Positions 3,093 through 32,500 of a stretch of DNA of 64,000 nucleotides are shown piece by piece (the first letter of the stretch is position 1; each line of letters starts with the position of its first letter). The position numbers were made by a program, and so were the translations under genes. The notes below the pieces were generated by a model, which was not told the origin of the DNA, searched no databases, and worked only from the letters and a program-made list of their open reading frames with translations. The stretch lies in NCBI RefSeq assembly GCF_007860125.1, contig NZ_SJPW01000006.1:125525-189524 (forward strand). Direction: 5' to 3'. The DNA is from Rubripirellula tenax. Lineage in GTDB: Bacteria; Planctomycetota; Planctomycetia; Pirellulales; Pirellulaceae.

Positions 3093-5825
3093 TTACCGAT
3101 CCAAGGAATCCGCCGGCTCGAACGCGTCGATCGGACTATCGCTTGCCAACGCTTCAAAAAAGGCCCGATCGCAAGAAACAAATGTCTGGTTGTCGCTGTG
3201 GATCGCGACCGTCGCGAATTCACCGACCAACACTTCGGCGTACTTGGCCAGCCGCTGCGATGCTTCGCAAGGGATTGACACCGTATCGGCTTGTTCGGTG
3301 TCCTGGGGCCATTGGAAGATGTCGATGGCAAGCCAAGCCGAATGATCGCCGATCCGTTGCGAAATCTCGCCTTCGGTTCCCGACTCTTCCGCCAGCAGTT
3401 TCGCGTCGAAAAGGTATGGTTTGCTGCCCCAATGAATGAAGTACTTGCAGTTCTGAGTCGCAGCGATGACGGCGTGTGCGTTGCATTGAAAGACGTAATC
3501 GTCCTCATCCGGCGTCATCTGATTTCGCTCGATTTGAAAAACCGCTTCGCCAATCGACCGTGACGCCTTGCTGACGATGCTGGCATCGAACGGGCGAGGT
3601 TCCTTCAACAAGAACACGACGCGCCGGACTTCGTTCCACGGCGAAAACTCACTCGCAACTTCGTCCGCCGCCGGCACTGGCGGATCGGTAAGCCACTCCT
3701 TGGGGACTTCGTCCGCGTTGACGAAGTCGTCGTGTGCGTACGTTGCAGATCGGGTCAAGCACCTTTGGTAAGCCGAGTCGAAATTGTACCGGTCGCCCTT
3801 TGCCGCATAGACCAGCGCTCGCAGAAAATCGCTGGAGCCTTCAAACGCCCGACGGGCCGATAGGATTGCGTCGTCGTAACGCTTCAGCCCAATCAGGAAG
3901 CGTGTCCGATAAGCATCGATCACGTCTTCCTGCCAACGGTTCTCGTCTGTCGGAACAAACTTCTCGTACGCCACAGCCAATCGATCGAGCCCCGATTGAT
4001 AATGGCCATTCCTCAGCAGCATCGGTAAATCGGCCAACAGAAATCGAAACAGATCGGGTTGGTCCGCTCGCAACATGGCTCGTACGGTTTCTAGGTCCGG
4101 ACCTTCGGGTAACTCGTTTTCCAGCGCATCGACCACTAGGTCTTTGGGTTCCAGTTCGGTGTACGAATCCACCGCACGATCCAATCGGGCATAGCAGTGA
4201 ACGCAACGGCTGATCGCCAGATAGCGATCGTCGTCGTCGTTGGCCAGGTTGATCGCCTTGGCAAAATACTCGCGAGCCACTTCGTATTCTTCGCCCTCGG
4301 CATGCCAATTGCCGACAAGATAAGTCGCTTCAAAACTGTTCTCTTGGTCTTGCAAGTACTTCGCAAGCAAGCTTTTGACATCGTCAATCGTCGGCTGGGT
4401 TTCGGTGCCGTCGATCGATTGTTCGACGAACTTTTCTGGCAGAACCGCTAACTCGTTGATGGCTTGCGTTTTGTCGTCACAGATCGCGTACGCTTGATGG
4501 ATCCGGCCGCACGAAACAGCCGACTCGCACAACGCTGGTTCGTACCATTCCCGGGCATCGTCATCGCTGTCGGTTTTGGCAATCAAGTCCGCCAAAATAT
4601 CAAAGCTGGCAACATGATCGCCGCGCATTCTTCGAAGGTTCGCACGATAGTAAGCCAAGTGCCGTGTTTCGGGATCCCGCTCGATGGTGACTTGGTTCAG
4701 TGTTTCTAAGGCCGCGTCGTCGTCTTCGACGATGAACGTGTCGCCGAGCTCTTCAAACGACTCGGCGAAGTTCGGCAAGGCTTGAAAGTAGCTCGCGAAC
4801 TCAGACTTGCGATCGTCGGGCAACGCCAATGCCAACGCACCGACGTTGATGACCGATTCGGGCGTATCCGCCAACGCCGACTTGTAAGCCTGGATCGCTT
4901 CGTCGGTGCGGTCAAGCTGTTCCAAAACGTGGCCGATCGAGTAATACGCATCGGCATCATGACCAAAACGGTTGAGGTAACCTTGGAAGTATTCCAGCGC
5001 GACGTCGTATCGCCCCAAGTCCGTATAGGCTTGGCCCAGCAAATAATCTTCCAGCGGAGCCGACGCCCCAAAGGCATCCGCCTTGTCGACCGATTCGATC
5101 ACCACGTGCGAATCGATCAACTCATGTACCGCGGCCGACAATTGCCATCGCAGCCCTTGGATCGTTTCAGCGACGGGGTGGCCCATGATCGCATCGATGT
5201 GTTCGGCGGCAAGGTAGACGTCACCCTGGGAACACGCCACCGCACATTGCATGACCTGCTTTGAGCCGAAAACCAGTTCCGCTGTTACGCTGCTCTTGAC
5301 CGATTCACGCAGGCCCATGGCTGCCATGGCAACCGTCGATATTCCGAACGACAGATCGGAGAAATCGGTGATGAACCAATCGTCACCCAATTTTTTAACG
5401 GTGTACCGTTCGCGCGCCGTCCCCGCTTCGTCGGACCAACTTCGCACATAGACATCGGCGACCGAATCGTTTTCGAAAAAATCAATCTGCATGATGCGAT
5501 GCCGCGTCCAAACGACCTCCAGCAACTCGATCTGTTGCGCGAACGCCACGTTCAAGGCGGCGACCAATTGCTGTTGTTGGCCGTTGGGTAACGTGACACC
5601 GGATTCCGCGACGACGTCGTTGGCCATTTCCGTCAGGTCATAGCAAGCATTGAGGTCGTCGGCGGATTCGGAGGCCGTTGCTGCCTGATACCGATCAAAG
5701 AACTGATGGATCTCTTTTTCGGCCACTGACCGAGAACGATCGGAGTCATCGTTGTTCGGGGCGTCCTGCGCGAATAAGGAACTGACAGCGAAAAAAACAC
5801 CGATAAAAAGAAACCGGATCATCAC
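3093..5825 (-). CDS. Secreted TPR-repeat protein
   Basis: 910 aa with an N-terminal signal peptide (MMIRFLFIGVFFAVSSLFAQ, cleavage likely after FAQ), so exported to the periplasm. An N-terminal part (about 25-190) has the alternation of a small alpha/beta domain (includes VKKLGDDWFITDFSDLSFG). Tetratricopeptide-like helix pairs follow: clear units at about 260-330 (LLGQAYTDLGRYDVALEYFQ, then AYYSIGHVLEQLDRTDEAIQ) and near 495-550 (AREYFAKAINLA). TPRs are protein-protein interaction scaffolds. The C-terminal 200 residues are not recognised. It is 149 bp downstream of the ECF sigma gene on the same strand and might be in its regulon or operon (inference). No enzymatic motif was seen. Confidence 0.75.
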   Translation of the reverse strand: MMIRFLFIGVFFAVSSLFAQDAPNNDDSDRSRSVAEKEIHQFFDRYQAATASESADDLNACYDLTEMANDVVAESGVTLPNGQQQQLVAALNVAFAQQIELLEVVWTRHRIMQIDFFENDSVADVYVRSWSDEAGTARERYTVKKLGDDWFITDFSDLSFGISTVAMAAMGLRESVKSSVTAELVFGSKQVMQCAVACSQGDVYLAAEHIDAIMGHPVAETIQGLRWQLSAAVHELIDSHVVIESVDKADAFGASAPLEDYLLGQAYTDLGRYDVALEYFQGYLNRFGHDADAYYSIGHVLEQLDRTDEAIQAYKSALADTPESVINVGALALALPDDRKSEFASYFQALPNFAESFEELGDTFIVEDDDAALETLNQVTIERDPETRHLAYYRANLRRMRGDHVASFDILADLIAKTDSDDDAREWYEPALCESAVSCGRIHQAYAICDDKTQAINELAVLPEKFVEQSIDGTETQPTIDDVKSLLAKYLQDQENSFEATYLVGNWHAEGEEYEVAREYFAKAINLANDDDDRYLAISRCVHCYARLDRAVDSYTELEPKDLVVDALENELPEGPDLETVRAMLRADQPDLFRFLLADLPMLLRNGHYQSGLDRLAVAYEKFVPTDENRWQEDVIDAYRTRFLIGLKRYDDAILSARRAFEGSSDFLRALVYAAKGDRYNFDSAYQRCLTRSATYAHDDFVNADEVPKEWLTDPPVPAADEVASEFSPWNEVRRVVFLLKEPRPFDASIVSKASRSIGEAVFQIERNQMTPDEDDYVFQCNAHAVIAATQNCKYFIHWGSKPYLFDAKLLAEESGTEGEISQRIGDHSAWLAIDIFQWPQDTEQADTVSIPCEASQRLAKYAEVLVGEFATVAIHSDNQTFVSCDRAFFEALASDSPIDAFEPADSLDR

Positions 5826-11557: not shown

Positions 11558-12631
11558 ATGCCCAGGCTTGCTCGTGGCGAGGTTCTTGATCCTGCCGAGA
11601 TTCAAATCGTTCACTGCGTCCAACGCTGTGTCCGGCGGGCTTTCCTGTGCGGAGATGATCCGGTCTCTGGGCAATCCTTTGAGCATCGACGTCAGTGGAT
11701 TAGGCAACGACTGGAGTTCTTGGCCAGCGTTTTTGCCGTTGACTGCCTGACCTACACCGTGATGCACAACCACATTCATTTAGTCTTGAGGAGTCGGCCG
11801 GATGTGCTGGCGACGTGGAGCGATGAAGATGTGGCCCGGCGCTGGTTGCGGTTGTTTCCCCATCGACGAAACAAAGACGGATCTCCCGCCGAACCGACGC
11901 AACCGGAGGTCAACATGATCGTCAACGATCCCGATCGACTCGCCGAGCGGCGGGCCAGATTGAGTGATCTGAGTTGGTGGATGCGCTGCACGGCGGAGAA
12001 TATTGCTCGCCGCAGCAACGCTGAGGACCGGGTAACGGGTCACTTCTGGGAAGGCCGATACAAGGCGGTCGTGCTATTGGATGAAGCCTCGCTGCTGGCT
12101 TGTTCGGCTTATGTTGACTTGAATCCGATCCGCGCGGCGATCGCCGAGACTCCCGAAGCAAGCAGCTACACCGGCGCGAAGGACCGCATCGATGACTTGA
12201 CCCACCGTGAAGACCGCACGCGGATGAGCACTCACGACTGGGAACGCAGTCGGCGGCGTCAGAAGAGTGGCTGGATGAGTCCGATTGAGATCAGTGAACG
12301 CGAGGATGCGATCGGTGCAGACGTCGATGGCAGCGGACGCCGGGCGAGCAAGAAGGGATTTCTTTCGATTTCGATGCTGAGATATCTGGAGCTGCTGGAC
12401 TGGACCGGTCGCAAACTTCAACAAGACAAAGCAGGTTCGATCCCTTCGCATCTGGCGCCGATTTTGGCACGCTTGGGCTTGGACTCAGACGGCTGGTGCG
12501 ACTTGGTGAAGAAATTCGGTCGGACGTTCAAACGGGCGGCGGGCACGGTGGAGAGCCTGGCCAATGAAGCGACCCGCCGCAACCGGCAGTGGCTATGCAG
12601 TCCGGGCAATCCGCTCCAGTCGGCCCGTTAA
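11558..12631 (+). CDS. REP-associated tyrosine (IS200-like) transposase
   Basis: 357 aa, single-strand HUH-type transposase of the Y1_Tnp/RAYT group. The HUH pair is H72-I73-H74 in VMHNHIHLVLR. The likely nucleophile tyrosine is in AYVDLNPIRAA, near residue 186. The order ends with GHFWEGRYK and the 'Y-x-D/H-LNP-x-RA' block typical of the family. The protein is longer than minimal RAYTs, with a C-terminal extension (about 230-357) of unknown role. Such enzymes act on short palindromic repeats; here CAAAAAGGGACAGG repeats flank the gene. It appears intact and could be active. Confidence 0.85.
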   Translation: MPRLARGEVLDPAEIQIVHCVQRCVRRAFLCGDDPVSGQSFEHRRQWIRQRLEFLASVFAVDCLTYTVMHNHIHLVLRSRPDVLATWSDEDVARRWLRLFPHRRNKDGSPAEPTQPEVNMIVNDPDRLAERRARLSDLSWWMRCTAENIARRSNAEDRVTGHFWEGRYKAVVLLDEASLLACSAYVDLNPIRAAIAETPEASSYTGAKDRIDDLTHREDRTRMSTHDWERSRRRQKSGWMSPIEISEREDAIGADVDGSGRRASKKGFLSISMLRYLELLDWTGRKLQQDKAGSIPSHLAPILARLGLDSDGWCDLVKKFGRTFKRAAGTVESLANEATRRNRQWLCSPGNPLQSAR

Positions 12632-15803: not shown

Positions 15804-18800
15804 TCACAAGAAATCTTGCCCAAAACCCGAACCTCTCTCATCGAACGACGAACGGATGTCGTTCCACTGTTGCCGAACGTCACCGGCAATTTCGTCAACG
15901 GTCACTTCGATCTCGGCGACGGATGTGGTGACCTTCGTTGCCGACAAACCGTCGCCGATGGACACGACGCGAGGGCAGTCCGGCATTTGATCGATGAAGG
16001 CTTGCGTGACCTCCTCTCGATTCAGTGCATCGGTTCGCGTGGGCGGATTGGCCATTGCGAGCGAACGGGGCTGGAAGGTGAATTCGCTCTCGAACAACCC
16101 TTCACCACTTTCCAGATTGGCTCGGATCCGACCGAGTTGATTGATGACGCGCAGGGCGTCGAGTGCCGTCACGCTGCCGTCGACGTTGACATCGTAATAG
16201 GGCGGTGCGAATCCGTCGGGCGGGAGAGCGACCAGTACGCCCCGGGCGTCGCTGACTCGGCGGCGTCCGAGTTCGTTGATGATGACCAGCGCGTCGACGG
16301 CCGTGACACCATTGAGGTCATCGACGTCGTAGATATCACGAGGGTTCGTCCATGGCCCAAGCGTCACCAGCGTCGTTGCGGGCGTGGCTTGCGGCTGAGC
16401 CTGTCGGTTGCCGACTTGGTCGACCGCAAAACTCTGGAATGCATACGTCGATCCGACCTGCCCGACGAACGCGCGTGATCCGGCCGCTGCTGCCGTATGC
16501 CAAAGTTCAAAATCGCCGTCATTGGTCGAAACAGAAATCTCAAACGATGCGATCCCCGAACCGCCGGCGTCATCGCCCGACCAGGTGACGTCAAACACGG
16601 CCAGCGACGTCGCCGGCAAATCGGCAACGAGACTGGTCGGCGGGGTGATGTCGATCGTGTTGAGAGTCGAGTTGGTGATGAGCGGTTCGTTGACATCGAA
16701 CACGATCTCGGCGGCGCCGCTGATCTGAGTGCCGGACGCGAGGCCGCTCTTGGCCGAAACGGTGTAGCTGACGTTGCCTTCGCCACGGCCGGTATCATCG
16801 TTGGGTGGTAAGAAGCCGGCATCAAAGAGTTCGGTTAATACACCGGTATTCGGATCAAGCGACGTGAACGTCCACGTGACGGTGCGGGTGACGAAATCAA
16901 GCTCTGCGTCAATCTGCAAATCGAGTTCGATTTCGCCCACGGTGATTCGTTCTGTCGTCGACCAAGCCGAACGTCTTTCGGGGACGTCAATGAATCGACC
17001 GCCGACGATGATGTCACCCAGTTCAAATGTTGTCAGGTCAAGATCATCGTCGAGGACTTCGGTAATAAAAACTTCTTGTGCGGGCAGCGTCGCCTGTTCG
17101 GGATCGTTCTCAAAGTAGATTGTGAATGGCATGGGCACGCCTTCACGGATGAATCCAGCAGCACCGAATCCCAGTGGCCCAACTTTCTCGTTGGGGTCAA
17201 ACGAACGACCACGTTCGCCCCGGAGCCTAGTATCCGGCGAGATGTTTAACGTCTGTTCCTCCTCGACCTGTTCGATCGTACCGCCTTGAGACGTTTTGGC
17301 ATCCGGATTGGTGATCTTGAGTTCTCCGCCGCGCGCATCTAATTCGGGAAGCGACGCGGAACCTAAACCTTTTCCGAAACTTGCATCTCTAGCCGCTTCA
17401 ATTTTCTCGAACTTCGCAAATTCAATTAGTTCCTCAGGCGTCAATAACTGTGGCGTGGTAGCCAGGTTCTGAAATCTCGGATTGGGCAACTCGATCGCGT
17501 TCGTTTCCTTGTTGACAACACGTCTGAAGTCCATTCCATTGACCGCACCACTTTGGTCGTAGTCCGGTATTTTGGTGTCGAATTCACCATCAAAATCTGT
17601 ATCGAACAGTATAAAGTCGTTCTTTCCGTCGCCGTCAGCATCGAGTTTCATTTCCGCCAAAACGAGCCCTGCGAAATAGTCTTTGTATTTGTTGATTAAC
17701 GCTTGTGGTTCCAAAGTTCTTTTAACCGTCCCAGATCGAACTGCCAGAAGTGCATTATTTACATTTTCTTGAGTCCTTGGGTTGGCATTGGAGTTTTTGA
17801 ATCCCGTTTCGATCAATGTTTTTGCGGCAATTCCGACAGCCGCATGAATGTCTTGCGAAGGATCTTTTAACAACAGAGGAACTAGGTTCTGCGTCAGCGA
17901 GTTATCGTTTAGAATCGAGAAATTCGCATCGGCAGCGGCAATCGAAGTTACGTTGAGAGCTTTGATCTCGGACGTAATTGCACCGGCATGACATGAGTCA
18001 ATCACGACCACGGTTCGCGTCGAACCGGCTACAGCCGCTTGCAATTCGCTGCCCGTCAATTCACGGTCTTTAAAGGCTAGGTTTCCACCAACCACCGCTC
18101 CTTCGTCATTCGTCCGACAAAACCCGTGCCCTGCGTAAGTGACAAATATCAAGTCATCCTCGTCGGCACGTGACCTGACCGAATTTATATTGCCGAGATA
18201 GTCGTCGGCATTCGCCGAGCCATCCGTATCGACAATAATTGGGCTTGGAGCACCCTCCTCCGATCCGATATTGAGGGTTTTCGTAAAGAAGTTCGCCCAG
18301 GTGTTGCCGTCGACATCCGCTCCCCCAGTGAGTGTTCCGTCTGGATTACCAACAACGACCGCATAAATATCTTGACGTCCGTCCGCAGCCCTCGTGGTCG
18401 TTTCTCCTTCCGGACTTCTGGACATTAATGTCGAATCGGAAACGACAGCCAAAGGTGCGAATTCATCGGACGAAATGCCACGCGAGACAGACGGCCCGGG
18501 CGGAATCGTTGGAAGATCGAAGAACCACTGGCCGTTCACGAATACGAGGTTGCGAAAGCCATCGCGGCTGAGTTCTTCGACTTGATCGGCTAGGAACTCG
18601 TACAGTTCCGCGAACGTTTCACCGTAGCGAGCGCGTTGTACGTCGATGTATTCATTCCACGATGTTTCGTCCGATCCGGCTGGTCGCAAATTCGCCGAAA
18701 TCAAATCCCAGTCAAACGTCGTTGCGCCGAAGTCCGGTTCGTCCACTGTATTGCCCCACGCGCTCACGGAAAAATCGCCTTCGTCCAGTGGCGCGTCGTA

Positions 18801-21800
18801 GTAGACCTGAACCGTCCCCGATGCACCTGGCGGAATGACGGAGGAACCCTTGGCAACCGGTGGCGGGAATAGAAACAATTCGTCGCTGCGGATCGTACTG
18901 TCGTATCTCGCCCGAAGCGTTCCGCCGCCTTCGACGTTGACCGTGATGAATGGCAACTTCATGTCAACGTTCGACGGATTGCTATAGCGGATCGTGTACG
19001 TGATTGTGCGACCGGATCGAACGCGTGTGCTGCCCGTCAAGTCGATTTGAATTTCGGCTTGGCGAGTTTCTTCAACGCGAATTCCCGCCGTCAGCGTCGA
19101 TACATCACCCATGCCATCACTCGCGACGACGTCATAATCGCCGATCGCAAGACCATCGAGATCGAACTTGGCTACGACTCGCGTGTCATCGATTCGCTCG
19201 ACGGTGATGGCTGGTCGATTCACACCACCGGCGCCAACGATCCGGTATTGCAGGTCCGCGTCCAACCGAGCGCCAGCGATGGTGAGGGTTGCCTGACCGG
19301 TGTTGCCGATACGCCCGGGTGACACGCTTTCGATCGACGGCGGAAGCACCACAGCGGAAATGTTGAACGACGCATTCGCCGAGTCAAACGAAGCCGGAAA
19401 CGCGGTGATGTACCAAGTGGAATCCGTCGCCAAACCGTTAATGATCGTAGTGACATTGGCTTGTCCGGCCTTCGTTTGTCGGCCATCGAAGTTGACTCGC
19501 GTGGGAATGTAGTTGCGGGCAACGTAGAGTTCGTTGATCGAGTTTCCACTTCCGAGCATTTGCAGATCGACACCAACGACCTCGCCAGCCGGAACCGTCA
19601 CCTTGTACCACTGCGGTTGACGCTGGTCCAAGAACTGACCCACCAAAACGGTGCCGTCATTGGGGAGTTCCCGAAAATCGACATCCACCGTCTCGAACGC
19701 TTCCGAATCGTTGTTTTGACGACCTTCCGCTTCGAGCACATTGCCGCGGCGGTTCGTTTCGACGACCCAGCGATAGACGCCCGGGAGCGCAGCAACGACA
19801 AGGATCTCCATCGAAAATGTTTTGGATTCAAATGGCGCGAGCGTCATACCGGCATTCACGTTGAAACCGCCGACCACGATATCGTTGGCGAATGTGATTG
19901 GATCTCCTGCGGCGTCAGTCTCGACTGGCGGCCGAAGTCGAATCTCGTCGTACCAGGGGCCGACGGCTTCGTTTTCGCCGAGGTTCGTCACCGTCCACTC
20001 AATCGTGACTCGGTCGCCGACCAGCGCGGTTGCCGGACCAGACACTTCACTGACAACCAAATCGATCGACGGTGCCCGATCGGCGAACGCGAAGACCGCA
20101 TTGTCTTCGACGATCGTTTCAAATCCACCGGCGAAGACTTGATCGAAAGTACCAGTTCGCGAGTTGAAGCCAATCATTTGATAGGCATCCATGCTTTGCG
20201 AATCGAATCGCTTGGTCGTCACGATGTCCAGCGTTCCGCCCAACGTGGCCGCTCCGGTCGCCGTGATATTGCTGAAGTCGCCGGTGACGGGTCGACCGCC
20301 AACCGAAAGAGTTAGATAGCCGGTGGACGCGAAATCACCGTCGACAATCAAGTCGACGTCGGACGCCAGTTTAAGGTGGCCAAACGTCCCCGATGCGACC
20401 GGGCTGAAACGGAACAGATTGCCGACTTCGGTGCTGACCCAGGTTTCGCCGGTGGTGTCGTTGTAGGAAACGTCGGATAGCGAAAACGGGTCCGCGCCGG
20501 TGTAACGAAGATCGATGTCCGATACGAAGCTGCCGGTTGCCGTCAGCACGCGAACACGGCTGTCGGTTCCGACGACCAACAGCTGACCCGTTGCGCCGAC
20601 CACATCGATACCGCCCTGATTGAACGGTATGGCGCTGACGCCAGCGGGATTCGCTGAAAACATTCGCAGCACCGCGCCGGTCGCCGGATTGATCTCGTGA
20701 ATCATCGCGTCGAGACCGAGCAGGTAAACGGTACCGCGCGTCGGATGCTCGGCCACACCGGCTCGATCGATGCCGACACCTTCGACGGTGACGGTCGCCA
20801 ACACTTCACCGCTGTCGGGATTGATCGCGTACAGGGTTGCCGGCGTCGCATTGGCGTGAACGAACAGCATCGATCCGGCCGGGACCGTCGTTCCGCCGAC
20901 GTTCATCGGACCAGAGAGGATGTCGATGCCCGACACGTTCACCGAGCCACCTGGCTGGACGATCGGATCGGAGGTCTCCAAAAAGTTCGCGCCGAATCGT
21001 CGGAATACGGGTTCACCGCCGATGCGTTCGTTTCGCGAGTGGGTCACCACATCGCCCGACACGGGATCGACCGCGATCCCGACGGTGCGAATCGTATGGG
21101 TGTAGCCAATTTGCTCGAGCCGAACCGAACTTCGGGTGACTCCGTTGGTGAAGTTCCCGACCGTCGAAAACGCTTGGCCGTTGTCAAGCAAAAGTTGTCC
21201 ACCATTGACCGCAAGACTTGCCAGCGATGGGAACGCGGCTCCCGCACCCACGAGTCGCACGGCGGCGTAGTTGGTTTGAATGGGTTCGTCTTCACCGTCA
21301 TCATCGAGGAAACGCAGCGTCGAAGCCTCGCCGACTTGCCAACTTCCGCCGTGAAGGGTTTGTGAACTCCGGTCAAACTGCTTCACATCACGAGCGGGCA
21401 ACGTCAGCGTCCCATCGTCGACTCGCACCAAGCCGGGGTTGCTAAAGAAAGGGGTGACACCGCCACTGATCGTGATCGCGGTAGTGCCGCCACCGGTCTT
21501 GACGAACGATCCGAAGTTGTTGAAATCGGCGAACAGTCCATCGAATTGTTGCAGTTCGATGTTCGCATCACCTTGCACGATCCAATCGCCATGATTGATC
21601 GTGCTGGATGAGTTTCGTAGCAACACATCCGTGCCGCTGGCTTGGATCAGCGTGCCGTTGTTGATGAATGTCGCGCCCGTGTTGATTGCTTCGTCCGAGT
21701 TCCGGAGCGTGATGAAGCCATCGTTCGTGATGAACCCGGTGTGAGAAGACGCACCAGACCCGGTCAGCTCGAAAAAGCCCTCCGGAAAGTCCAACGTAAA

Positions 21801-23810
21801 ATCACGACCGTCACCGTCAAGGCGCGCGCTCAACTTGACGAGGCCGCCGCCGTCGCCGGTGTAACGTCCGGTGGATGTCAGTCGACCGACCATTTCAATC
21901 GTCGAGCCGGCCGCGACATCGAAGTGCGCGCCCGTCGCAACGAAGTTGCTGGAGTGATTTGCGACTAAGTCACCACCGACAACTTCGACGATTCCGCCGA
22001 GATGGACCAATGCCACGTTCACGTCGACGATCCTCGCGGTGCCCGCGCCCGTCTTGCGGACAGTCCCCGAATTTCGCAGTGTCGCCGTGCTCAGATTCAC
22101 GCCCGCGATGTTGGCATCGCCTTGCAACTCATAGGCCGCGCCCGCGGCGTTGATAAAGCCGGCGGAACTGGACGTCACCGTGGTGCCAGCCGTTTGGATG
22201 ATGGTTCCGGTGTTGGTGAACGCGTTGAGAAGTTGCTTCGCGCCGGTTCCCTCGATCGTCACTTGACCGGTGCTGGTAATGTCACGAAAGAACGTTCCGC
22301 CGATCCATCGAAACAGACCATCGGCAAAGTCGATGACTGCATCCGAGCCCACCGATTCGATGCGGCCACCGGTAAACTCGATCCGTCCATCGCCTGTTCC
22401 CGTCAATGTCGTGCCGGCGAGCAGATCAATTTCCGAGTTACCGGCGGTGCCATTGAATTCGACAACACCGCCCGCATCCACATCGATCGTGCTGGACGCG
22501 AATTGGCCGCCACGTTCGAGCAAGAATCGTCCACCGCTCGCCGCCAGTGTGCTGCCTTCACCGGCGACCAGCAGCGAATCCCAAACGATATTGCCCGAAC
22601 GGTTTTTGATGATCGAGTTGTTGAAAGTACGCCCACCGATGATCGCGCTGGTGCCGACGTTTTCGATGATGCCACCGGCATCGTTGTGCAGCCACGTTCC
22701 CTGACCGGTGGAGCTGAATAGACTGTTGCCGCTGGCCGTGATCAGGATCTCGCCTTCGTTGTGGAACTCCTGCCCCCAAAGCGTTCGTTCGCCAGAGCCG
22801 GACCATGACATGTGTCCGGCATTGACCAGCGTGTCGCCGCCATCGTTGTCGGTGAAAATGGTACCGCCGGTCCAGTGAAACAAACCGTCGGCGAAGTCGA
22901 ACACGGTTCCACTCGTTCCGGTCGCGCCACGCGTGTCGATACGACCTTGCGAGTGTTCGATGCGCCCGGCGCCAGTACCCGTGTAGGTGCCGACGTAGTA
23001 CGACGTGCCCGAAGTGATATCCAAGCTTGCGCCGGCGGCCACGTCGAAATGGGCTCCTGTCGAAGGTTGCGCGCTCGTGCCCGAGATCGGCAGGAACAGG
23101 GTGCCACCGAGCACTTCGATACGACTGCCGGTGACGTGGGTCACGCGATCCGAGCTGCCGTAGAACGAAGTGCTTTCGGAACCCGTTTTTCGGAGCGTCC
23201 CCTCGTTCGTGAACGTGATGCTGAAACTGCCCGCGAAATTGAAGTCGCGATGCAGACTCCAAACACCTTCGGCTTCGTTCAGGATTGTCGATCCGCTCGA
23301 TGGCGACGCGAACGGTTGCTGCTGGTCGACGATGCCGGAGTTGGTCCAGTCACCTGAGAAACGTTTGTTGGCTTCGGTTTCGACAATCAGCTTTGCGTCG
23401 TCTTCCGTCGTCAGGGTGCCCGTCCGCAGCCAACCGGCCTGCCAACGAAACTCACCGCCAGATAGCACGGCGTCGTCGTTGATTCGGAAATCGGCTTGCA
23501 TCACGATCGACTCGGTCGACATCAGGGCGTCGATCTGAACAGGCGATGCGATGGTAATGGTCGGGTTCGCAGCGCCACGATCGATCGTCACTGTGTCACC
23601 GGTACCTGGAACGCCGACGCCACCCGACCAATTGGCGGGATCGCTCCAGAGTCCGTCGGAATCCGTATTCCAAATGAAGGCGGCGAGCAACTGCCGTTGT
23701 TCCAAGGCTTCGATGCCGCGTAGCGATGCACGGGTTCGCCGCGATCGACCGACCCTGTCGCTTTCTAACGGGTTGAACGAGCGATATACGAAGTTCAAGC
23801 GTCTTGTCAC
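15804..23810 (-). CDS. Giant surface protein A with caspase-like domain and dockerin-like repeats
   Basis: 2668 aa, GTG start. A basic N-terminus leads to ALEQRQLLAA (35-44), the planctomycete LEPR-XLL export motif. Visible parts, with estimated positions: beta-helix-like repeats of the 'FTNEGTLRKTGS' type (50-900); a propeller-like stretch (about 905-1140); a CARDB-like domain (about 1247-1350); a PPC-like domain from about 1380; an IPT/TIG-like domain (about 1500); a caspase-like (C14) block (about 1820-2000) with H1895 in TYAGHGF and C1940 in DSCHAG; a DUF7619-like beta domain; and two dockerin-like units near 2490-2570 (DVNVDGSVTALDALRVINQL). The His-Cys dyad is 45 residues apart, as in caspase-like peptidases. 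The caspase block is poorer in G+C than its flanks. Function unknown; surface adhesion plus proteolysis is plausible. Confidence 0.88.
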   Translation of the reverse strand: MTRRLNFVYRSFNPLESDRVGRSRRTRASLRGIEALEQRQLLAAFIWNTDSDGLWSDPANWSGGVGVPGTGDTVTIDRGAANPTITIASPVQIDALMSTESIVMQADFRINDDAVLSGGEFRWQAGWLRTGTLTTEDDAKLIVETEANKRFSGDWTNSGIVDQQQPFASPSSGSTILNEAEGVWSLHRDFNFAGSFSITFTNEGTLRKTGSESTSFYGSSDRVTHVTGSRIEVLGGTLFLPISGTSAQPSTGAHFDVAAGASLDITSGTSYYVGTYTGTGAGRIEHSQGRIDTRGATGTSGTVFDFADGLFHWTGGTIFTDNDGGDTLVNAGHMSWSGSGERTLWGQEFHNEGEILITASGNSLFSSTGQGTWLHNDAGGIIENVGTSAIIGGRTFNNSIIKNRSGNIVWDSLLVAGEGSTLAASGGRFLLERGGQFASSTIDVDAGGVVEFNGTAGNSEIDLLAGTTLTGTGDGRIEFTGGRIESVGSDAVIDFADGLFRWIGGTFFRDITSTGQVTIEGTGAKQLLNAFTNTGTIIQTAGTTVTSSSAGFINAAGAAYELQGDANIAGVNLSTATLRNSGTVRKTGAGTARIVDVNVALVHLGGIVEVVGGDLVANHSSNFVATGAHFDVAAGSTIEMVGRLTSTGRYTGDGGGLVKLSARLDGDGRDFTLDFPEGFFELTGSGASSHTGFITNDGFITLRNSDEAINTGATFINNGTLIQASGTDVLLRNSSSTINHGDWIVQGDANIELQQFDGLFADFNNFGSFVKTGGGTTAITISGGVTPFFSNPGLVRVDDGTLTLPARDVKQFDRSSQTLHGGSWQVGEASTLRFLDDDGEDEPIQTNYAAVRLVGAGAAFPSLASLAVNGGQLLLDNGQAFSTVGNFTNGVTRSSVRLEQIGYTHTIRTVGIAVDPVSGDVVTHSRNERIGGEPVFRRFGANFLETSDPIVQPGGSVNVSGIDILSGPMNVGGTTVPAGSMLFVHANATPATLYAINPDSGEVLATVTVEGVGIDRAGVAEHPTRGTVYLLGLDAMIHEINPATGAVLRMFSANPAGVSAIPFNQGGIDVVGATGQLLVVGTDSRVRVLTATGSFVSDIDLRYTGADPFSLSDVSYNDTTGETWVSTEVGNLFRFSPVASGTFGHLKLASDVDLIVDGDFASTGYLTLSVGGRPVTGDFSNITATGAATLGGTLDIVTTKRFDSQSMDAYQMIGFNSRTGTFDQVFAGGFETIVEDNAVFAFADRAPSIDLVVSEVSGPATALVGDRVTIEWTVTNLGENEAVGPWYDEIRLRPPVETDAAGDPITFANDIVVGGFNVNAGMTLAPFESKTFSMEILVVAALPGVYRWVVETNRRGNVLEAEGRQNNDSEAFETVDVDFRELPNDGTVLVGQFLDQRQPQWYKVTVPAGEVVGVDLQMLGSGNSINELYVARNYIPTRVNFDGRQTKAGQANVTTIINGLATDSTWYITAFPASFDSANASFNISAVVLPPSIESVSPGRIGNTGQATLTIAGARLDADLQYRIVGAGGVNRPAITVERIDDTRVVAKFDLDGLAIGDYDVVASDGMGDVSTLTAGIRVEETRQAEIQIDLTGSTRVRSGRTITYTIRYSNPSNVDMKLPFITVNVEGGGTLRARYDSTIRSDELFLFPPPVAKGSSVIPPGASGTVQVYYDAPLDEGDFSVSAWGNTVDEPDFGATTFDWDLISANLRPAGSDETSWNEYIDVQRARYGETFAELYEFLADQVEELSRDGFRNLVFVNGQWFFDLPTIPPGPSVSRGISSDEFAPLAVVSDSTLMSRSPEGETTTRAADGRQDIYAVVVGNPDGTLTGGADVDGNTWANFFTKTLNIGSEEGAPSPIIVDTDGSANADDYLGNINSVRSRADEDDLIFVTYAGHGFCRTNDEGAVVGGNLAFKDRELTGSELQAAVAGSTRTVVVIDSCHAGAITSEIKALNVTSIAAADANFSILNDNSLTQNLVPLLLKDPSQDIHAAVGIAAKTLIETGFKNSNANPRTQENVNNALLAVRSGTVKRTLEPQALINKYKDYFAGLVLAEMKLDADGDGKNDFILFDTDFDGEFDTKIPDYDQSGAVNGMDFRRVVNKETNAIELPNPRFQNLATTPQLLTPEELIEFAKFEKIEAARDASFGKGLGSASLPELDARGGELKITNPDAKTSQGGTIEQVEEEQTLNISPDTRLRGERGRSFDPNEKVGPLGFGAAGFIREGVPMPFTIYFENDPEQATLPAQEVFITEVLDDDLDLTTFELGDIIVGGRFIDVPERRSAWSTTERITVGEIELDLQIDAELDFVTRTVTWTFTSLDPNTGVLTELFDAGFLPPNDDTGRGEGNVSYTVSAKSGLASGTQISGAAEIVFDVNEPLITNSTLNTIDITPPTSLVADLPATSLAVFDVTWSGDDAGGSGIASFEISVSTNDGDFELWHTAAAAGSRAFVGQVGSTYAFQSFAVDQVGNRQAQPQATPATTLVTLGPWTNPRDIYDVDDLNGVTAVDALVIINELGRRRVSDARGVLVALPPDGFAPPYYDVNVDGSVTALDALRVINQLGRIRANLESGEGLFESEFTFQPRSLAMANPPTRTDALNREEVTQAFIDQMPDCPRVVSIGDGLSATKVTTSVAEIEVTVDEIAGDVRQQWNDIRSSFDERGSGFGQDFL
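17701..18420 (-). other. Caspase-like (peptidase C14) block inside giant A
   Basis: The segment opens with DIYAVVVGNPDGTLTGG, continues through DDLIFVTYAGHGF (His codon 18126-18128) and TRTVVVIDSCHAGAITSEI (Cys codon 17991-17993), then a helical continuation. The order (first strand, then GHG, then DSCHAG after a further strand) is that of caspase-like proteases of bacteria. A hand count gives 26 G+C in 60 bases at 17701-17760 but 39 in 60 at 20701-20760 of the same gene. Confidence 0.8.
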
Positions 23811-23989: not shown

Positions 23990-24027
23990 GAACGCTTCGC
24001 GGGGGTCAGGCTAGGTTTTCGGTTTTC
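23990..24027 (+). repeat. Left 38-bp inverted repeat of RAYT element 2
   Basis: Pairs with 25051-25088; 37 of 38 positions complement (the mismatch is at base 24 from the outer end, A here and T in the partner). It overlaps the last codons and stop of the transposase. Confidence 0.85.
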
Positions 24028-24995
24028 AGCTCTAGATTGTACTCGATTTCTTCGATTGCTTGGAGATAATAGTTCGATTCATCCATTCGCTTTTTGGCGC
24101 GTCGAATGAGATTGGAGGAGCTATCGGGGTGCGACAAACCGAACCGCTGGGATATCCGGCTCAGCGGCTCACCGGTCCACCTTCGGCAAAGGTAGGCTGC
24201 GATCTCGCGACCGGCCGCTGTACTTCGGAATCCAACATATTCATCTTCCTCGACGTCATAATAGGCTGCCGTTTCCGTCATCACCTCATCCATCGAAATC
24301 GCTTTCATCCGTCGCGCCGTTCGGTGTCGCTTCTGGCTTTCTTCGCCACTGGCAAGCACGATCGCTCGCTTCAAGAATGATTCGCTGCCAAGCACCCAGC
24401 CTCGAAGGGCGCCCGAAAGCGGGTTCTCATTGACCTCCATCCCAGCTTTGACGTACTGCCGGTAGGCCAAGCCTGGATCCTTTCCGCCATTGGCAGCTTG
24501 CCAGTAGTTATGCAGGTCATCGTACGCGATCCAGTCCACGCGACTGGTCTTCCGCGCGTAGCCGGGGTAGCTACTGTGCTTCCATCGATCGGCGGTCGCA
24601 CAGAGGGGCCGCAGCCCGCTGCACGGGTTCAGATGAATGTACCGGCTGAGCGACCAGAAGTAGCCGGCATCTTCGACCAAGAAGGACTTGTATCGACCTT
24701 GAAACAAATGGCCAACGCGCCGATTTCGTTTGGCGTACCAGTTAGCAAAACCTGACAGCCAGTGCTGCATGCCTCTGGCTAAGTTGGGCTCCGGTGTTTG
24801 CAGAAGCAAATGGATGTGATTCGGCATCCAGCAATAAGAAAGCACTTTCCAGCCAGACCGAGTAACTTCTTCCTTCAGTCCACGCGTCAGGCGCTCATAG
24901 TGGCCATCATCATGAAAAAGCACTCGTCGTCCATCGCCACGGGTGACAATGTGGTAGATCGCATCAGGAAATTGAACACGAGGCTGTCTGGCCAC
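24006..24995 (-). CDS. REP-associated tyrosine (RAYT) transposase with C-terminal HTH
   Basis: 329 aa HUH-type transposase. H60-I61-H62 lies in CWMPNHIHLLLQTP, and the likely nucleophile Y119 in SRYIHLNPCSGLR, both in family context (RGxxxxxVF-like RGDGRRVLF at the start, GHLFQGRYKS before the tyrosine). The C-terminal part (about 215-320) contains a DnaA-like helix-turn-helix (EPLSRISQRFGLSHPDSSSN) as in longer RAYTs. Its stop codon is inside the element's left inverted repeat. Intact, so possibly active. The neighbouring repeats are unrelated in sequence to those of RAYT element 1, so the two systems recognise different ends. Confidence 0.9.
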   Translation of the reverse strand: MARQPRVQFPDAIYHIVTRGDGRRVLFHDDGHYERLTRGLKEEVTRSGWKVLSYCWMPNHIHLLLQTPEPNLARGMQHWLSGFANWYAKRNRRVGHLFQGRYKSFLVEDAGYFWSLSRYIHLNPCSGLRPLCATADRWKHSSYPGYARKTSRVDWIAYDDLHNYWQAANGGKDPGLAYRQYVKAGMEVNENPLSGALRGWVLGSESFLKRAIVLASGEESQKRHRTARRMKAISMDEVMTETAAYYDVEEDEYVGFRSTAAGREIAAYLCRRWTGEPLSRISQRFGLSHPDSSSNLIRRAKKRMDESNYYLQAIEEIEYNLELKTENLA

Positions 24996-26176: not shown

Positions 26177-26532
26177 TGGAACAGGTTCTTCTCAGGCACT
26201 CGAGTTGGCGACGCTCGCGGGCTCTCGCATCGGCAGAGGCTAGAACATCCGGGGGGGCAACGCTACGGGTGTCCTGCAACCACCTGGATCCATTGTTTAA
26301 GTGCCAGATCCATCGGAAATCCACCCTCCCTAGGGATGATGTCGGACCCGTCTGACGAGGATACAATAATCGGCTTTCGACGCCTCGAAATATCCAAGCG
26401 GAGCTGATCGCATCCCCAGGTCGCAAACGTTTCAGTCATCGCAAATCGCTCTGCCAGCACCGGTTTCGCTAGGCATTTGGGTCGATCTACAAGCGACAAA
26501 TCACCGTGGTTTACATCCTGAAAGTTACAAAA
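26177..26532. other. Divergent intergenic region between luxR-like gene and giant B
   Basis: 356 bases with no supported gene; it must hold promoters for both divergent genes. A perfect 10-bp palindrome TCCCTAGGGA is at 26327-26336, about 150 bp from the regulator start and 200 bp from the giant B start. The frames across the region have no coding character. Confidence 0.45.
26327..26336. promoter_or_regulatory. Palindrome, candidate operator
   Basis: TCCCTAGGGA, in the middle of the region shared by the LuxR-type gene and giant B. A binding site of the LuxR-type regulator is possible, but no second copy supports it. Confidence 0.2.
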
Positions 26533-29500
26533 ATGTCAGCGTTTGATCGTTTGAAGGCAGTTCTGCGCAAAATTCCCTCGCCAGCTTCCAGCACAAGCCT
26601 AACCGTAAGCGGGTCACGTGGAGCTTACCGGACCGCTCGCGGCCAAAGCACGCGGCGACATCGCCCCCAAATGGAGACGCTCGAACGCCGGAATCTATTG
26701 GCGGCTGCAATCTGGGATGGCGGAGGTGGTACCGATCTGAAGTGGAGCACTCCGGCCAACTGGGTCGGCGACATCACCCCCGCCACCGGCGACGACGTCA
26801 CGATCAACGACCCCCGCGATATTGAGGTTCTTTACGACCTGACCGATCCGCTGACGATTACCTCATTGAATGCTAGTGAAAGCCTCAAGCTTACGACGGG
26901 CGAACTGACTGTCAGTGGGGCGATGGTGATGGCCCCCAATGCAAGGCTCACTGCCCAAGCAGCAGAGTTCCAGGCAGATGGTGCAACGACGGTTGACAAC
27001 GCGCATCTCTACGCAATTGCTGGTGGTCAAATTAAGTTGGCCGGTGTGATCAGCTACACCAGTACCACGACCAGCAACTTCGATCGCTACCTACGAGCCG
27101 ATGGCGTTGGCAGTGTGTTGTCGCTGCCGAACTTGGCTTCGCTGACGGGTGCCCGAAACGGCAATGATGAGGTCCGGGTCAACGCTCTCAATGGCGGCGT
27201 TGTCGAACTCGGAACGCAAGTCGATTCAATGGTCGTTCCCAGCGGCGCTGTTCAGTTCCTGGCCGATGGAGGTGAAGACGACCTCGCTAGCCTGATCGAC
27301 ATGCCCAACTTGACCAGCTTTCAAGGGTACTTCGACTACTATTTCGCCACGACAGAATCGGGATTCTTCGCAAAAAATGGGGGAGCGATCCACTCGCCGA
27401 AACTGACCTCCATTTCTCATGCCGACATCACGCTCGATGGCAGCGGCACCATGGATACGAGGCAGATCGTTTCATACAACGGCGGCTACTATGGCGACCT
27501 GACACTCAGCAATGTTGTTCCTGACTTCAGTAGCATGGAATCGCTCACATGGGCGAACGTCCGGGTCGACGGATTGTCCGTTCCGTTTCCCCTGTTGACC
27601 AACATCGACACATCCTCTTGGTACTTGACCAACGCTGCCACCGTGACGCTCGATGGTGTGACCAGCTACACCAACTCAAACACCAACGATGGTGATCGCT
27701 ACCTACGAGCCGATGGCGTTGGCAGTGTGTTGTCGCTGCCGAACTTGGCTTCGCTGACGGGTGCCCGAAACGGCAATGATGAGGTCCGGGTCAACGCTCT
27801 CAATGGCGGCGTTGTCGAACTCGGAACGCAAGTCGATTCAATGGTCGTTCCCAGCGGCGCTGTTCAGTTCCTGGCCGATGGAGGTGAAGACGACCTCGCT
27901 AGCCTGATCGACATGCCCAACTTGACCAGCTTTCAAGGGTACTTCGACTACTATTTCGCCACGACAGAATCGGGGTTTTTTGCCAAGAATGTGGGAACAC
28001 TGAAGGTTGGAAGTGAGGTTTCGCACAGCGCTGTTAAGTCTGCATTTATTGACATAGGATCCAACGGGACCTTGCAGACAACTAGCCTGACCGCGGTATC
28101 TGGTGTGTCGTTTCGCGGTGGCGGAGCAATCACTGGTGACTATGAAAATGGCTCACAGATCAGTCCCGGTCCAGGCGATAGTAGTTTGACTTTGCAGGGC
28201 AATTTTCGGCAATCAAACTCTGGTCAAACACGGATTGAAATCGGCGGAAACAACGCCGGAATGGATTTTGACCAACTTGCCGTCGGAATCGAAGCGACTC
28301 TTGGTGGCACTCTCGAGATCGTTCGGACCAACGGGTTCTTACCAACTCTGCGACAAGAGTTTCATGTGCTTGTTGCAGGAAGTGTCTCCGGGTCGTTTTC
28401 CAATGTCGTGGGTGCTGCAATCGGTGATGGCATCAAGCTGCAACCGGAGATCCGTAGTGATGGGGTCTATCTGGTGGCGGTCGCGGACCTGGGGCCGAAG
28501 TTGATTGGGACGATTCCGAAAATCGAGACTCGACACTCGCTGAACTTTGTCGATGTGGTGTTTGATGAACCGATCGCAGCGGATTCGATCGATGTCAGCG
28601 ATATGGTGCTCAGTGGGCCCGGTGGCGTGATCACGATCGATGCGGTTTCGCAACCGACGGCTTCTTCCGTGAGGTTCGAGTTCGCCGATCAAACGGCGCC
28701 CGGTACCTACACGTACTCAGTTGGATCGCAGATCACCGATGCGGCTGGAAACTTGATGGATCAGGATGGCAATGGAACCGGTGGCGAAGCGGGTGACGTG
28801 TTCACCTCATCCATCGAGTTGGTCGTCCCCAATGAGCCGGTCGTATTCACCCAAACGCCCAGTGGACTGGTCACGACTTCGTCGACCACGATCGACCTGG
28901 GATTCTCAGTGCCGCTTGATGTTGCATCGGCGACCGATGCAAATAGCTTCGTGCTGACGCATTTGGGTGCGGACCAGCGTGTTGGCGGCGGGGATGACCA
29001 AGCGTTTGCCATAACGCCGACGTACACCGCAGCGAGCCTGGATGTGTCGCTCGCCGCCGATGATTTCGCGACTGGCTTACCCGATGGGCACTATCAACTC
29101 CGCGTGCTCTCCGGTGCAACCGGAATTAGAAACGTGGTGGGGGGTCAGCTCGATGGCAACGACGATGGAACGCCCGGCGACGACTACGTGGGACAGTTTC
29201 AAGTCAGCACCTCGGCGGCGACCGCCGAGCTCCGTTTGGCGGCTATTAGTGATTCAGGCGTTTCGTCCTCCGACGGCATCACCAACATCGCTGACATAAC
29301 GTTTGAAGTGACCGTCAATCAAATCGGACGGATCGAATTTGATGCGGACGGCAATGGGGCTGCCAATGAAACGATGTTTGCCAGCCAGCCGGGCACGTAT
29401 TCCTTCACCACCACGTTCACGCAAGACGGCAACCATCAACCCAAGATCGTTTTTCAACCGGCGTACGGTAGCCGACTGAACCGGTCTGCGTCGGTCACAC

Positions 29501-32500
29501 TCGATCGCACGGCGCCCACGTTTGTTCTAGGCGAGACGACTCAGCAGGCACCGGTGCTTTCACGTGTCGTACAGTTTAGCGAAACCGTCACCAATACCGA
29601 CGGAAGTGCGGCTGCTGGAACGCTGATGGCAACTCTGACCGGCCCCGCCAACCAGCCGATCAATCTGCGTGGACTCAGCGGTGATACTGACACCTACGTG
29701 TTGACGTTTGATCCGCTCTTCGTCCCCGGTGACTACGAACTGGCGGCAACGACTCAAATTTTTGACGTCGCTGGCAACAAAATCGCTGCCGCTCCAGTGG
29801 ACCCGTTCGTCGTGCTAGCCGATGTGACGAAGCCCTTTGTGACTGAGTTTTCACCTCTCGGAGAAACTAATCAGGACACAGATCGATTCGTTGTCACGTT
29901 CAGCGAACCGATGGATGCGGCAACCTTGACACCGTCAGTAATCACCGTGCAGACGCCGGCTGGTATCCCAGCGATCACTGCCGCATCGGTTGCCGCGGTT
30001 GCAGGCAGCGATACCCAATACGAGATCACGTTGGCGGCTCCGATCTCAGTGGCGGGCGAGTACTTGATCACGATCGCTGCTTCGGTCGCCGATCTGTCTG
30101 GCAATACGCTCGGAACTGCCTATGCGGCAGCGATCACGATTGACAGGACGGGATCACGTATCACAACTGCCACACCCGCAGGTACTTTGAACCGAGTGGT
30201 TAGCTTCGTTGATGTCACTTTCGATTCACCCATCCAGTTGGCTTCCTTCCGAAACAATGATGTGACGTTGACGGGACCTGCCGGCGCGGTGTCGATCGGC
30301 CAGCCCACGCGATTGTCGGGCAACGCGTATCGAATTCCCTTCACGCCCCAGCGGGCCAATGGCGATTATCAACTGACCGTCGGCCCCAACGTGCTGGACA
30401 TCGCGGGCAATCCGATGGATCAGGACAGTGACGGGACGACTGGCGAAGCGACCGAAGACGTGTTCACACATGCATTTGCAATCTCGCTCCCCGATTTGAA
30501 CATTGTCGATTCGGTCGGCCTGACGGATCTTGGTGGCGCGGCGATCACGGAGATGCCGTTTGGAAGCTCTTTGCAAATCGCTTGGACGACGACGAATTCG
30601 GGAACCCTTGCTACCATCGGCGCGAATCGTGATCAAGTCTGGTTGTCAAGCGACGCCACCCTGTCCGCAGGCGATGTCCTGCTTGGGGCATTCGAATTAT
30701 CCGGAGCAAATACACTGGCTACCGGAGCTGAGTACAGCGGACTGCTGTCGACCAGTATTCCGCTGACCAATGGTAGCGTCGCGGGCGACTACTTCATTCT
30801 GGTGCAAACCGATTCAACGGGCGGTATCGTTGAAGCGAACGAGCAAAACAATGTCCGTGCTGTTCCGCTGAGCCTGACTTTTCCGCCCCTACCCGATTTA
30901 GTCGCCACGGAGATCACGCCGCCATCGGAGATTGTGCCTGGAACGACGACGACACTGGGTTGGCAGATCGACAATATCGGTGATGAAATCGCAGTCGGGC
31001 CTTGGATTGAACGCGTTTTCCTGGCCAATGACGCCGGAGGAGACAATCGGCAATTGGTTGCATCCTTCAATCGCGTTGGTAGCTTAACAGCCGCAGACGC
31101 TGCACGGATACGCACCGAGCAGATTTCATTGCCCCAGCAGACGCTTAATGGCGATGTCTACTTCCTCATCGAAGTCGACTCGGGCGAGGCGGTCTTTGAA
31201 TCCGACGAACAAAACCTGTTCGCCAGTGCGACGACCCTGAATATCCCCGCCAGCTTGACGATGGCACTCGGTGGTAACCAGGTGACCGAAGGCGGCAACG
31301 GCGTTCGCGCGACGCTGACTCGCAATGGTGACGTTTCGCTGCCGTTGGTGGTTTCCCTGTCAGCCAGCGCTTCCGACCAGTTGTCTCTGCCCGAAACCGT
31401 CACCATTCCTGCTGGCCAGTACTCGCGTCGCTTCACGATTTCGGCGATCGACGAAGCGGTTATCGATGACGATGTGACGGTGCTAGTGTCGGCGAACGCC
31501 GATGACTATCCGGCTGCCTCGGGGCTGATCACCGTCGTCAATAACGATCAGCCGACATTGACCCTCAGTTTACCAGCGACAGAAATCGTCGAAGGTGGCA
31601 GCCTTACCGCGACGATCACTCGAGGGTCGGCCGCGAGCACAGACATTATCATCTCCGTATTAAACGCCGATGCAAGTCAGCTCGACGTTGTTTCAAGCGT
31701 AACCCTGCCCGCCGGTCAGACTAGCGTCACGTTCGGCATTACGGCAATTGATGACCTTTTGATCGAACGAGCCACCCAGCACAGTATTGCAGTCTCTGCG
31801 GTAGGGCATCTGGCCAGTGCCGGCGACTTGACGATTCTTCAAAGCGACGTCCCGGCCATCACATTGCAGATGCCCCAAACACTTGCGGAAGGTTCCTCGG
31901 GCCCGACGCTGCTTGGCCGAGTCACACGGGATGCGGTCAGCAATGTGGCTGTCCAAGTCGAACTGGTTTCCGCTGATCCGACGCAAGTTGTCTTACCGGC
32001 GACCGTCACCATTCCCGCCGGTCAAAGCTTTGGACAGTTCCAGTTTCAGATTGGAAATGATGACTTGGTGACCGGCGATCGGTCGGTGGATGTTTCGGCT
32101 GGAGTGCTGCCCAGCGATGGTGGCGCTGCGTTTACAGAAAGCCTGACAAACACGTCGGTGCAGATTCTGGAAGACGACGGACAGTCACTCAGCGTTACCT
32201 TTGCCAGCGACACAGTCGCCGAAGGCCGTGGCATTCAGGCGACGATCGCACGCAACACCACTGATCTTTCTCAAGCCGTCACGGTCACGTTCACATCGGA
32301 TGACGTGGGTGAGCTGATCGTACCGACACCGGTGACCATTCCGGCCGGCGAATCGTCTGCTACTGTGACTTTGTCAGGCGTCCGCGATGGCGAAGTTGAT
32401 GGTGACCAAGTCGTGACGGTCTTGGCAACGGCCGACGGTTTTTTGACGGGAACGGGCACGATTGTGGTCGCCGATAGTACTCTGCCCGATTTGATCGTCA

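What the first reader, a model, noticed from the sequence alone, without database searches (positions are those of the whole stretch)
17701..18420. Caspase-like protease domain inside a giant secreted protein
H1895 in TYAGHGF and C1940 in DSCHAG are 45 residues apart, as in C14 caspase-like enzymes. Bacterial caspase homologues are mostly cytosolic; here the domain is in a LEPR-XLL-type exported protein with beta-helix, CARDB, PPC and dockerin-like parts. A surface-displayed caspase-like activity is uncommon.
Basis: partly seen in the sequence, partly recalled or inferred. Interest (0 to 1): 0.75.

Follow-up and report, generated by a model that had tools for sequence, protein, structure and literature searches.

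The report
Caspase-like domain in giant protein
A planctomycete bacterium carries a caspase-like protease domain inside a giant, probably exported protein, in a position where related proteins carry quite different domains, which suggests an interchangeable payload on a shared surface scaffold.

Summary
Window ORF 15804-23810(-), 2668 codons, has H1895 and C1940 45 residues apart. The excised domain passes Pfam's Peptidase_C14 cut-off (23.7-24.7 bits against 21.4); the full-length scan misses it. A profile of the domain and three homologues matches 12 other Pirellulaceae caspases at hhalign probability 99.3, though 10 of those 12 were fetched by similarity to it. The dyad is kept in 4 of 4. 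No fold was obtained (single-sequence pLDDT 32).

The wider result is the setting. The domain fills a slot between a CARDB/PPC/IPT-like flank and a DUF7619-dockerin end. In 30 DUF7619 loci read from Pirellulaceae, the stretch before DUF7619 holds caspase or legumain-like domains in 6 (one broken), RHS/YD repeats in 11, other sequence in 13. Two same-genus proteins, G129 and G149, are 67-85% identical before the slot and 70-90% after it, with no significant match inside. I read it as an exchangeable payload, probably an active peptidase with metacaspase-like basic specificity. Catalysis, export and specificity are inferred. Extracellular caspase homologues and caspase domains in large surface proteins are already described (PMC3501461, PMC3482391), so rarity is only partly supported.

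The parts
15804..23810 (-). 2668-aa giant ORF carrying the caspase domain
23682..23705 (-). LEPR-XLL-like motif LEQRQLLA, residues 36-43
   Evidence: similar motif in G013, G075, G129 and G586; not recognised by NCBIfam
20091..23681 (-). N-terminal repeat region, residues 44-1240 (beta-helix-like by reading)
   Evidence: sequence reading; the corresponding region is Calx-beta and CARDB repeats in G129 and begins with a legume-lectin domain in G149
19404..20075 (-). CARDB/DUF11-like and PPC-like domains, residues 1246-1469
   Evidence: sub-threshold Pfam matches; co-linear with G129 and G137
18405..19325 (-). Conserved N-flank of the slot, residues 1496-1802 (IPT-like and CARDB-like by reading, then the RYGETF helix)
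   Evidence: HMM of W, G013, G075 and G129 found in the up to about 500 residues before DUF7619 in 13 of 17 loci of the phylum search that have a complete DUF7619 start, W and G129 set aside
17775..18377 (-). Caspase-like (C14) domain, residues 1812-2012
18126..18128 (-). Putative catalytic His 1895
   Evidence: invariant in the 4 rows of alignment A3
17991..17993 (-). Putative catalytic Cys 1940
   Evidence: invariant in the 4 rows of alignment A3
18309..18311 (-). Asp 1834, likely counterpart of metacaspase S1 Asp95
   Evidence: invariant in the three-protein alignment A1; not Asp in G129; S1 residues from PMC4357240 passages
17997..17999 (-). Asp 1938, likely counterpart of metacaspase S1 Asp211
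   Evidence: invariant in A1; Gly in G129
17526..17642 (-). Three putative calcium-binding loops, residues 2057-2095
   Evidence: DxDGDGxxD-type loops at the same place in G013 and G075; calcium binding inferred
17202..17222 (-). RGERGRS, residues 2197-2203, candidate processing site just before DUF7619
   Evidence: identical in W, G013, G075 and the broken G011 copy; RS before xDPN also occurs in at least five chassis without a caspase
16347..17201 (-). DUF7619-containing module, residues 2204-2488
   Evidence: PF24595 57.8 bits, cut-off 27
16134..16331 (-). Dockerin type I, residues 2494-2559
   Evidence: PF00404 32.4 bits, cut-off 22.9

Best explanation
The finding is a C14 (orthocaspase/metacaspase-type) cysteine peptidase domain carried as an internal, exchangeable payload of a giant exported chassis: CARDB/PPC/IPT-like stalk, payload, calcium loops, DUF7619, dockerin. 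Inferred mechanism: after export the chassis displays the domain; His1895 activates Cys1940; an acidic S1 pocket (Asp1834, Asp1938) favours Arg or Lys at P1; the adjoining calcium loops may gate it; it cleaves proteins met at the cell surface or the chassis' own linkers. Shown here: family membership at profile level, conserved dyad, position in the slot, variable slot content. Inferred: export, catalysis, specificity, calcium control.
For: Domain over the Pfam C14 cut-off in this protein when excised and in full-length G075 (33.5 bits); all 3 members of A1 match PF00656 at E up to 0.1, best 8.9e-10. A1 aligns weakly to 4 solved sequences, E 0.0068 to 0.34, three of them metacaspases, with the His and Cys motifs in register in the alignments shown. 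hhalign 99.3% against 12 caspases of the family. His and Cys invariant in 4 of 4 rows. Both S1 aspartates kept in W, G013 and G075, 3 of 3; their role is taken from PMC4357240 (passages). A further C14 domain (45.3 bits) sits in the same slot in G137, whose ORF, open at the contig end, also carries CARDB, DUF7619 and dockerin. Slot variation: G129 against G149; same-genus G586 has RHS/YD repeats, by reading, between flanks homologous to W; 30 Pirellulaceae loci read. The lowest-GC3 396-codon window starts close to the start of the domain in W, G013 and G075.
Against: No usable fold model. The full-length scan misses C14. Ten of the 12 caspases in the hhalign test were fetched by similarity to this domain, so that test is not independent. 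G129's copy matches legumain family C13 (30.5 bits, cut-off 22.8), not C14, and lacks both S1 aspartates. The tree does not resolve whether the slot's clan-CD domains share one origin. A slightly lower GC3 window (0.487 against 0.495) occurs in the neighbouring 4485-aa gene, and G129 and G586 show no dip confined to the slot, so the composition argument is weak. G129 and G149 share no flanking gene in the short stretches fetched, so they may be different loci rather than one gene with a swapped part. No strongly hydrophobic stretch was seen in the first 70 residues on a simple scale.
Confidence: 0.6

Rival explanations
1. Embedded autoprotease: the domain mainly cuts its own chain (for example at RGERGRS before DUF7619) to release the N-terminal stalk, as clan-CD domains do in MARTX-type proteins.
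For: RGERGRS is identical in W, G013, G075 and broken G011, next to a linker of which only 10 of 105 residues are invariant among W, G013 and G075; the corresponding stretch in G137, GQAGRSRDPN, also holds GRS; PMC3482391 section 11 proposes autoprocessing for internal caspase-like domains.
Against: RS directly before xDPN occurs in at least five chassis without a caspase (L027, L107, L114, L116, L119), so the site is not specific to caspase payloads; in G129 no R or K lies in the 10 residues before DUF7619.
Confidence: 0.22
2. Antagonistic effector: the caspase is a toxin-like payload used against competing cells, as in polymorphic toxins.
For: Variable payload and RHS/YD repeats in the same slot; caspase-like toxin domains are described in PMC3482391.
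Against: The payload is internal, not C-terminal; only 200 bases separate the end of the gene from the end of a convergent histidine kinase gene, which leaves little room for an immunity gene there; genes elsewhere were not tested for immunity, and no delivery system was looked for by search.
Confidence: 0.1
3. Non-catalytic structural or binding module with a caspase fold.
For: PMC3501461 gives dyad conservation of 64% for planctomycete metacaspases (passages), so inactive ones are common.
Against: The dyad and both S1 aspartates are kept in W, G013 and G075, which are about 37-45% identical over the domain.
Confidence: 0.08

Closest known systems
Orthocaspases / prokaryotic metacaspases (Pfam PF00656, MEROPS C14B)
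   Same: His-Cys dyad, GHG and DSC motifs, S1 aspartates, profile match over cut-off
   Different: Embedded in a 2668-aa chassis; weak score; DSCHAG where the metacaspase aligned has DSCHSG; the Pfam match stops at profile position 137-139 of 233
Legumain family C13 (PF01650)
   Same: Sub-threshold match here (15.1-15.7 bits); over cut-off in the co-linear homologue G129
   Different: This protein scores higher with C14 and has a GHG/DSC signature
MARTX cysteine protease domain (C80)
   Same: Clan-CD peptidase inside a giant secreted multi-domain protein (PMC4357240, passages)
   Different: No C80 family was among the Pfam matches listed; predicted P1 basic rather than leucine; an inositol-phosphate site was not looked for
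Caspase-like domains of large surface proteins and polymorphic toxins (PMC3482391)
   Same: Internal clan-CD domain, modular payloads, RHS repeats in related proteins
   Different: Payload is followed by DUF7619 and dockerin rather than a C-terminal toxin; no immunity gene seen beside the 3' end
Extracellular prokaryotic metacaspases (PMC3501461)
   Same: Predicted extracellular caspase homologues
   Different: The passages seen do not mention this chassis or slot; the whole paper was not read

Membership tests
Peptidase family C14 (PF00656) | Profile score over the curated cut-off | tested here: met
   23.7-24.7 bits against 21.4 for the excised domain; not reported for the full-length protein
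Peptidase family C14 (PF00656) | His and Cys in GHG and DSC contexts | tested here: met
   H1895 and C1940; invariant in 4 of 4 rows
Peptidase family C14 (PF00656) | Caspase/haemoglobinase fold | tested here: inconclusive
   Single-sequence AlphaFold model, pLDDT 32.3
Metacaspase/orthocaspase subgroup | Acidic S1 residues (Asp95 and Asp211 of TbMCA2) | tested here: met
   Asp1834 and Asp1938 invariant in W, G013 and G075; alignment-based only; absent in G129
Metacaspase/orthocaspase subgroup | Cleavage after Arg or Lys, calcium dependence | not testable with these tools
   needs purified protein
Legumain family C13 (PF01650) | Profile score over the curated cut-off | tested here: not met
   15.1-15.7 bits against 22.8; met by the G129 homologue (30.5)
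Caspase, EACC1-associated type (NF047832) | Score over the NCBIfam cut-off | tested here: not met
   24.7 bits against 140
LEPR-XLL / Planc_extracel exported proteins | Model match at the N-terminus | tested here: not met
   No NCBIfam match for the N-terminal 70 aa and no PF07595 in the full-length Pfam scan; motif present by eye; PF07595 sub-threshold in G075
Polymorphic toxin | C-terminal toxin domain with adjacent immunity gene | tested here: not met
   The domain is internal; only 200 bases lie between the gene and the convergent kinase gene

The most novel reading that the evidence does not exclude
DUF7619-dockerin giant proteins of Pirellulaceae form a polymorphic display system: one exported chassis with an internal payload slot between a CARDB/IPT-like flank and DUF7619, loaded by recombination with caspases, legumain-like peptidases, papain-like or hydrolase-like enzymes, or RHS/YD repeats with a variable tip. 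The caspase here is one such payload.
Probability: 0.4. Interest if true: 0.72.

Novelty: new variant of a known kind. Interest (0 to 1): 0.52.

Why it matters
If right, giant planctomycete proteins, which are poorly characterised, have a readable logic: a constant chassis and a variable, often enzymatic part. That would let function be predicted from the slot and would give an extracellular, possibly calcium-gated caspase relative to study outside cell death. It also links clan-CD peptidases and RHS repeats through one shared insertion place.

Tried and rejected
Structure: the window sequence alone (residues 1805-2020) gave pLDDT 32.3, so no fold search was run. Named relatives: two genome-contig scans (47 and 67 pattern stretches) and one viral-contig scan (48 stretches) confirmed no relative; tblastn against plasmids and phages found none at E up to 1e-5. 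Hence no organism names for the homologues.

Autocleavage at RGERGRS was first thought specific to caspase payloads; rejected as specific because RS before xDPN also occurs in L027, L107, L114, L116 and L119. Shared gene neighbourhood of the orthologues: no pair of flanking genes matched in the stretches fetched, apart from weak matches of the giant genes and one 26%-identical ORF pair at unrelated places. Single origin of the slot's clan-CD domains: neither shown nor rejected (p-AU 0.486 with G129, 0.401 with G129 and G137; G137 joins W, G013 and G075 at 47/79 support). Chance motif: rejected. A first reading of the minus-strand loci was on the wrong strand and was redone. One script stopped with an error and was run again corrected.

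Full report
Observation. The minus-strand ORF 15804-23810 encodes 2668 aa. H1895 and C1940 lie in TYAGHGF and DSCHAG, 45 residues apart. Shuffling the protein 2000 times gave the joint pattern 0 times. It is the only match to the 336-aa query in its own genome at E up to 0.01; with the Pfam C14 family the same genome shows two other proteins, both on contig C4, in open frames of 694 and 1189 aa, and not this one.

What the domain is. The full-length scan lists no C14, but the excised domain passes the C14 cut-off (23.7-24.7 against 21.4 bits) with sub-threshold Raptor_N and C13. The orthologue in G075 passes C14 even at full length (33.5 bits); full-length G013 does not list it. All 3 members of A1 match C14 when excised. 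A search of PDB sequences with A1 gave 4 sequences at E up to 1: three metacaspases and one uncharacterised protein, best 0.0068, with the His and Cys motifs in register in the three alignments shown. Profile-profile comparison of A3 (W, G013, G075, G129) with 12 other caspases of the family gave probability 99.3, E 4e-20 over 168 columns; 10 of the 12 had been fetched by similarity to this domain (1, 9) and 2 by the Pfam family, so this is no independent control. His and Cys are invariant in 4 of 4 rows. The fold itself is untested: pLDDT 32.3.

Specificity. PMC4357240 (passages) names Cys92, Asp95, Ser156 and Asp211 as S1 residues of a metacaspase. By alignment Asp95 and Asp211 correspond to Asp1834 and Asp1938, both kept in W, G013 and G075. 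G129 lacks both and matches C13 instead (30.5 bits, cut-off 22.8). So basic P1 preference is inferred for W, G013 and G075 only. Three DxDxDG-type loops follow the domain in these three; calcium binding is inferred.

Distribution. With the A1 profile, 15 of 199 Pirellulaceae genomes matched at E up to 0.001: three intact giant proteins (G000, G013, G075), one broken copy (G011), G129 (3681-aa frame), and ten proteins in frames of 330-1393 aa. All ten carry caspase-type His and Cys motifs on reading; the four of them scanned pass C14. In a phylum sample 1 of 392 genomes matched at E up to 1e-8, the window's own. In the genus 2 of 22 genomes matched at E up to 1e-5, the second through a 1266-aa frame in G142; in the genus of G075 2 of 2, one of them the broken copy; in that of G129 1 of 9. 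These counts are lower bounds: G137's slot caspase was not among the matches and was found only through DUF7619. The G011 copy is in pieces: fragments matching W 22-522 and 1909-2561 on one strand and 1000-1289 on the other (whose numbering runs 15 higher), with the Cys motif but no His motif.

The slot. G129's 3681-aa protein is co-linear with W over W 1246-2045 (4e-40) and over DUF7619 (2e-49), but begins with Calx-beta and CARDB repeats. The phylum search matched 19 of 392 genomes and returned 30 loci; 17 of them, W and G129 set aside, had a complete DUF7619 start, some from the same genome. An HMM of the N-flank was found upstream in 13 of these 17. All 17 were scanned with Pfam over the 500 residues upstream: RHS repeats in L023 and L035; carboxypeptidase-regulatory-like domains over cut-off in L017, L019, L027 and L034; a hydrolase-like stretch in L038 below its cut-off (22.8, cut-off 26.3); a TIG match at cut-off in L022; the others gave only sub-threshold matches or none. 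In the family search 57 of 199 genomes had DUF7619 at E up to 1e-15; I read the 30 loci returned, the best-scoring ones, from 30 of the 57 genomes. Content of the stretch before DUF7619: clan-CD peptidases in 6 (W, G013, G075, broken G011, G129, G137), RHS/YD repeats in 11 by motif count (one of the 11, L107, scanned with Pfam and confirmed), other in 13. Of the 10 loci scanned, L113 (G137) gave C14 at 45.3 bits. L116 (G149) looks papain-like by reading only; Pfam named no peptidase there. G137's ORF, 1423 aa and open at the contig end, carries CARDB, C14 (42.6 bits), DUF7619 and dockerin, and matches W over 1247-1954 and 2172-2571.

Exchange. G129 and G149 belong to one genus and have one DUF7619 match each at that threshold. 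Identity per 60 residues is 67-85% from G129 residue 1261 to 2400, about 25-37% of positions from 2401 to 2640, lower and gappy up to about 3000, and 70-90% from 3061 to 3600. The two slots, 470 and 274 aa, gave no blastp match better than E 2.0. The exchanged stretch therefore seems to include the N-flank. In the window's own genus G586 has a 3055-aa protein that matches W 1221-1766 at 25% and W 2205-2561 at 46%, with RHS/YD repeats by reading between. GC3 of the W payload is 0.505-0.517 against 0.62-0.70 elsewhere in the gene, and the lowest 396-codon window starts at 1781, 1616 and 1831 in W, G013 and G075, whose payloads start near 1805, 1617 and 1832; but the neighbouring 4485-aa gene has a slightly lower window (0.487), the C-terminus of G013 is as low as its payload, and G129 and G586 show no dip confined to the slot.

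Literature. PMC3501461 (passages): 30 of 671 prokaryotic metacaspases placed extracellular; dyad conservation 64% in Planctomycetes. PMC3482391 (section 11 read; passages): caspase-like domains in certain large surface proteins and in polymorphic toxins, as processing peptidases or toxins. PMC12617251 (passages): DUF7619 is predicted to form intramolecular isopeptide bonds. PMC11573180 (passages): Planctomycetota are rich in huge proteins and contribute most to their dockerin domains. PMC6426788 (passages): acidic pocket in orthocaspases. The papers listed by searches (title and start of abstract, capped lists) showed none on this chassis or slot; this covers only part of one open library.

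Judgement. The domain is a real C14 relative by sequence and likely an enzyme. Its most interesting feature is the slot, supported by one clear same-genus pair and a survey, but not yet by trees.

Noticed in passing
window 24006-24995 (-) and 11558-12631 (+): IS200/Y1-type transposase matches lie on both sides of the giant gene (48.2 bits over the cut-off of 23, and 20.9 below it), which could bear on its mobility.
   Followed up: no
window 26506-39963 (+): A second giant ORF of 4485 aa with Big_5, CARDB, Big_13 and dockerin domains; its lowest-GC3 396-codon window starts at codon 2796.
   Followed up: partly
G000:C3 around 616890-617705: A 12,015-aa open frame in the same genome with a remote match to the DUF7619 module.
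   Followed up: no
L063 2712-13754 (-): The N-terminus of the G129 protein holds long, nearly identical tandem Calx-beta units, suggesting recent duplication (reading).
   Followed up: no
L011 6041-10902: The G011 copy is rearranged, with a middle piece on the opposite strand.
   Followed up: partly
L129 1298-9997 (+): The G149 chassis begins with a legume-lectin domain where G129 has Calx-beta repeats, so the N-terminal head varies as well as the slot.
   Followed up: no
L012 8931-13109 (+): A kinase-TPR-caspase fusion in a 1393-aa frame in G109.
   Followed up: no
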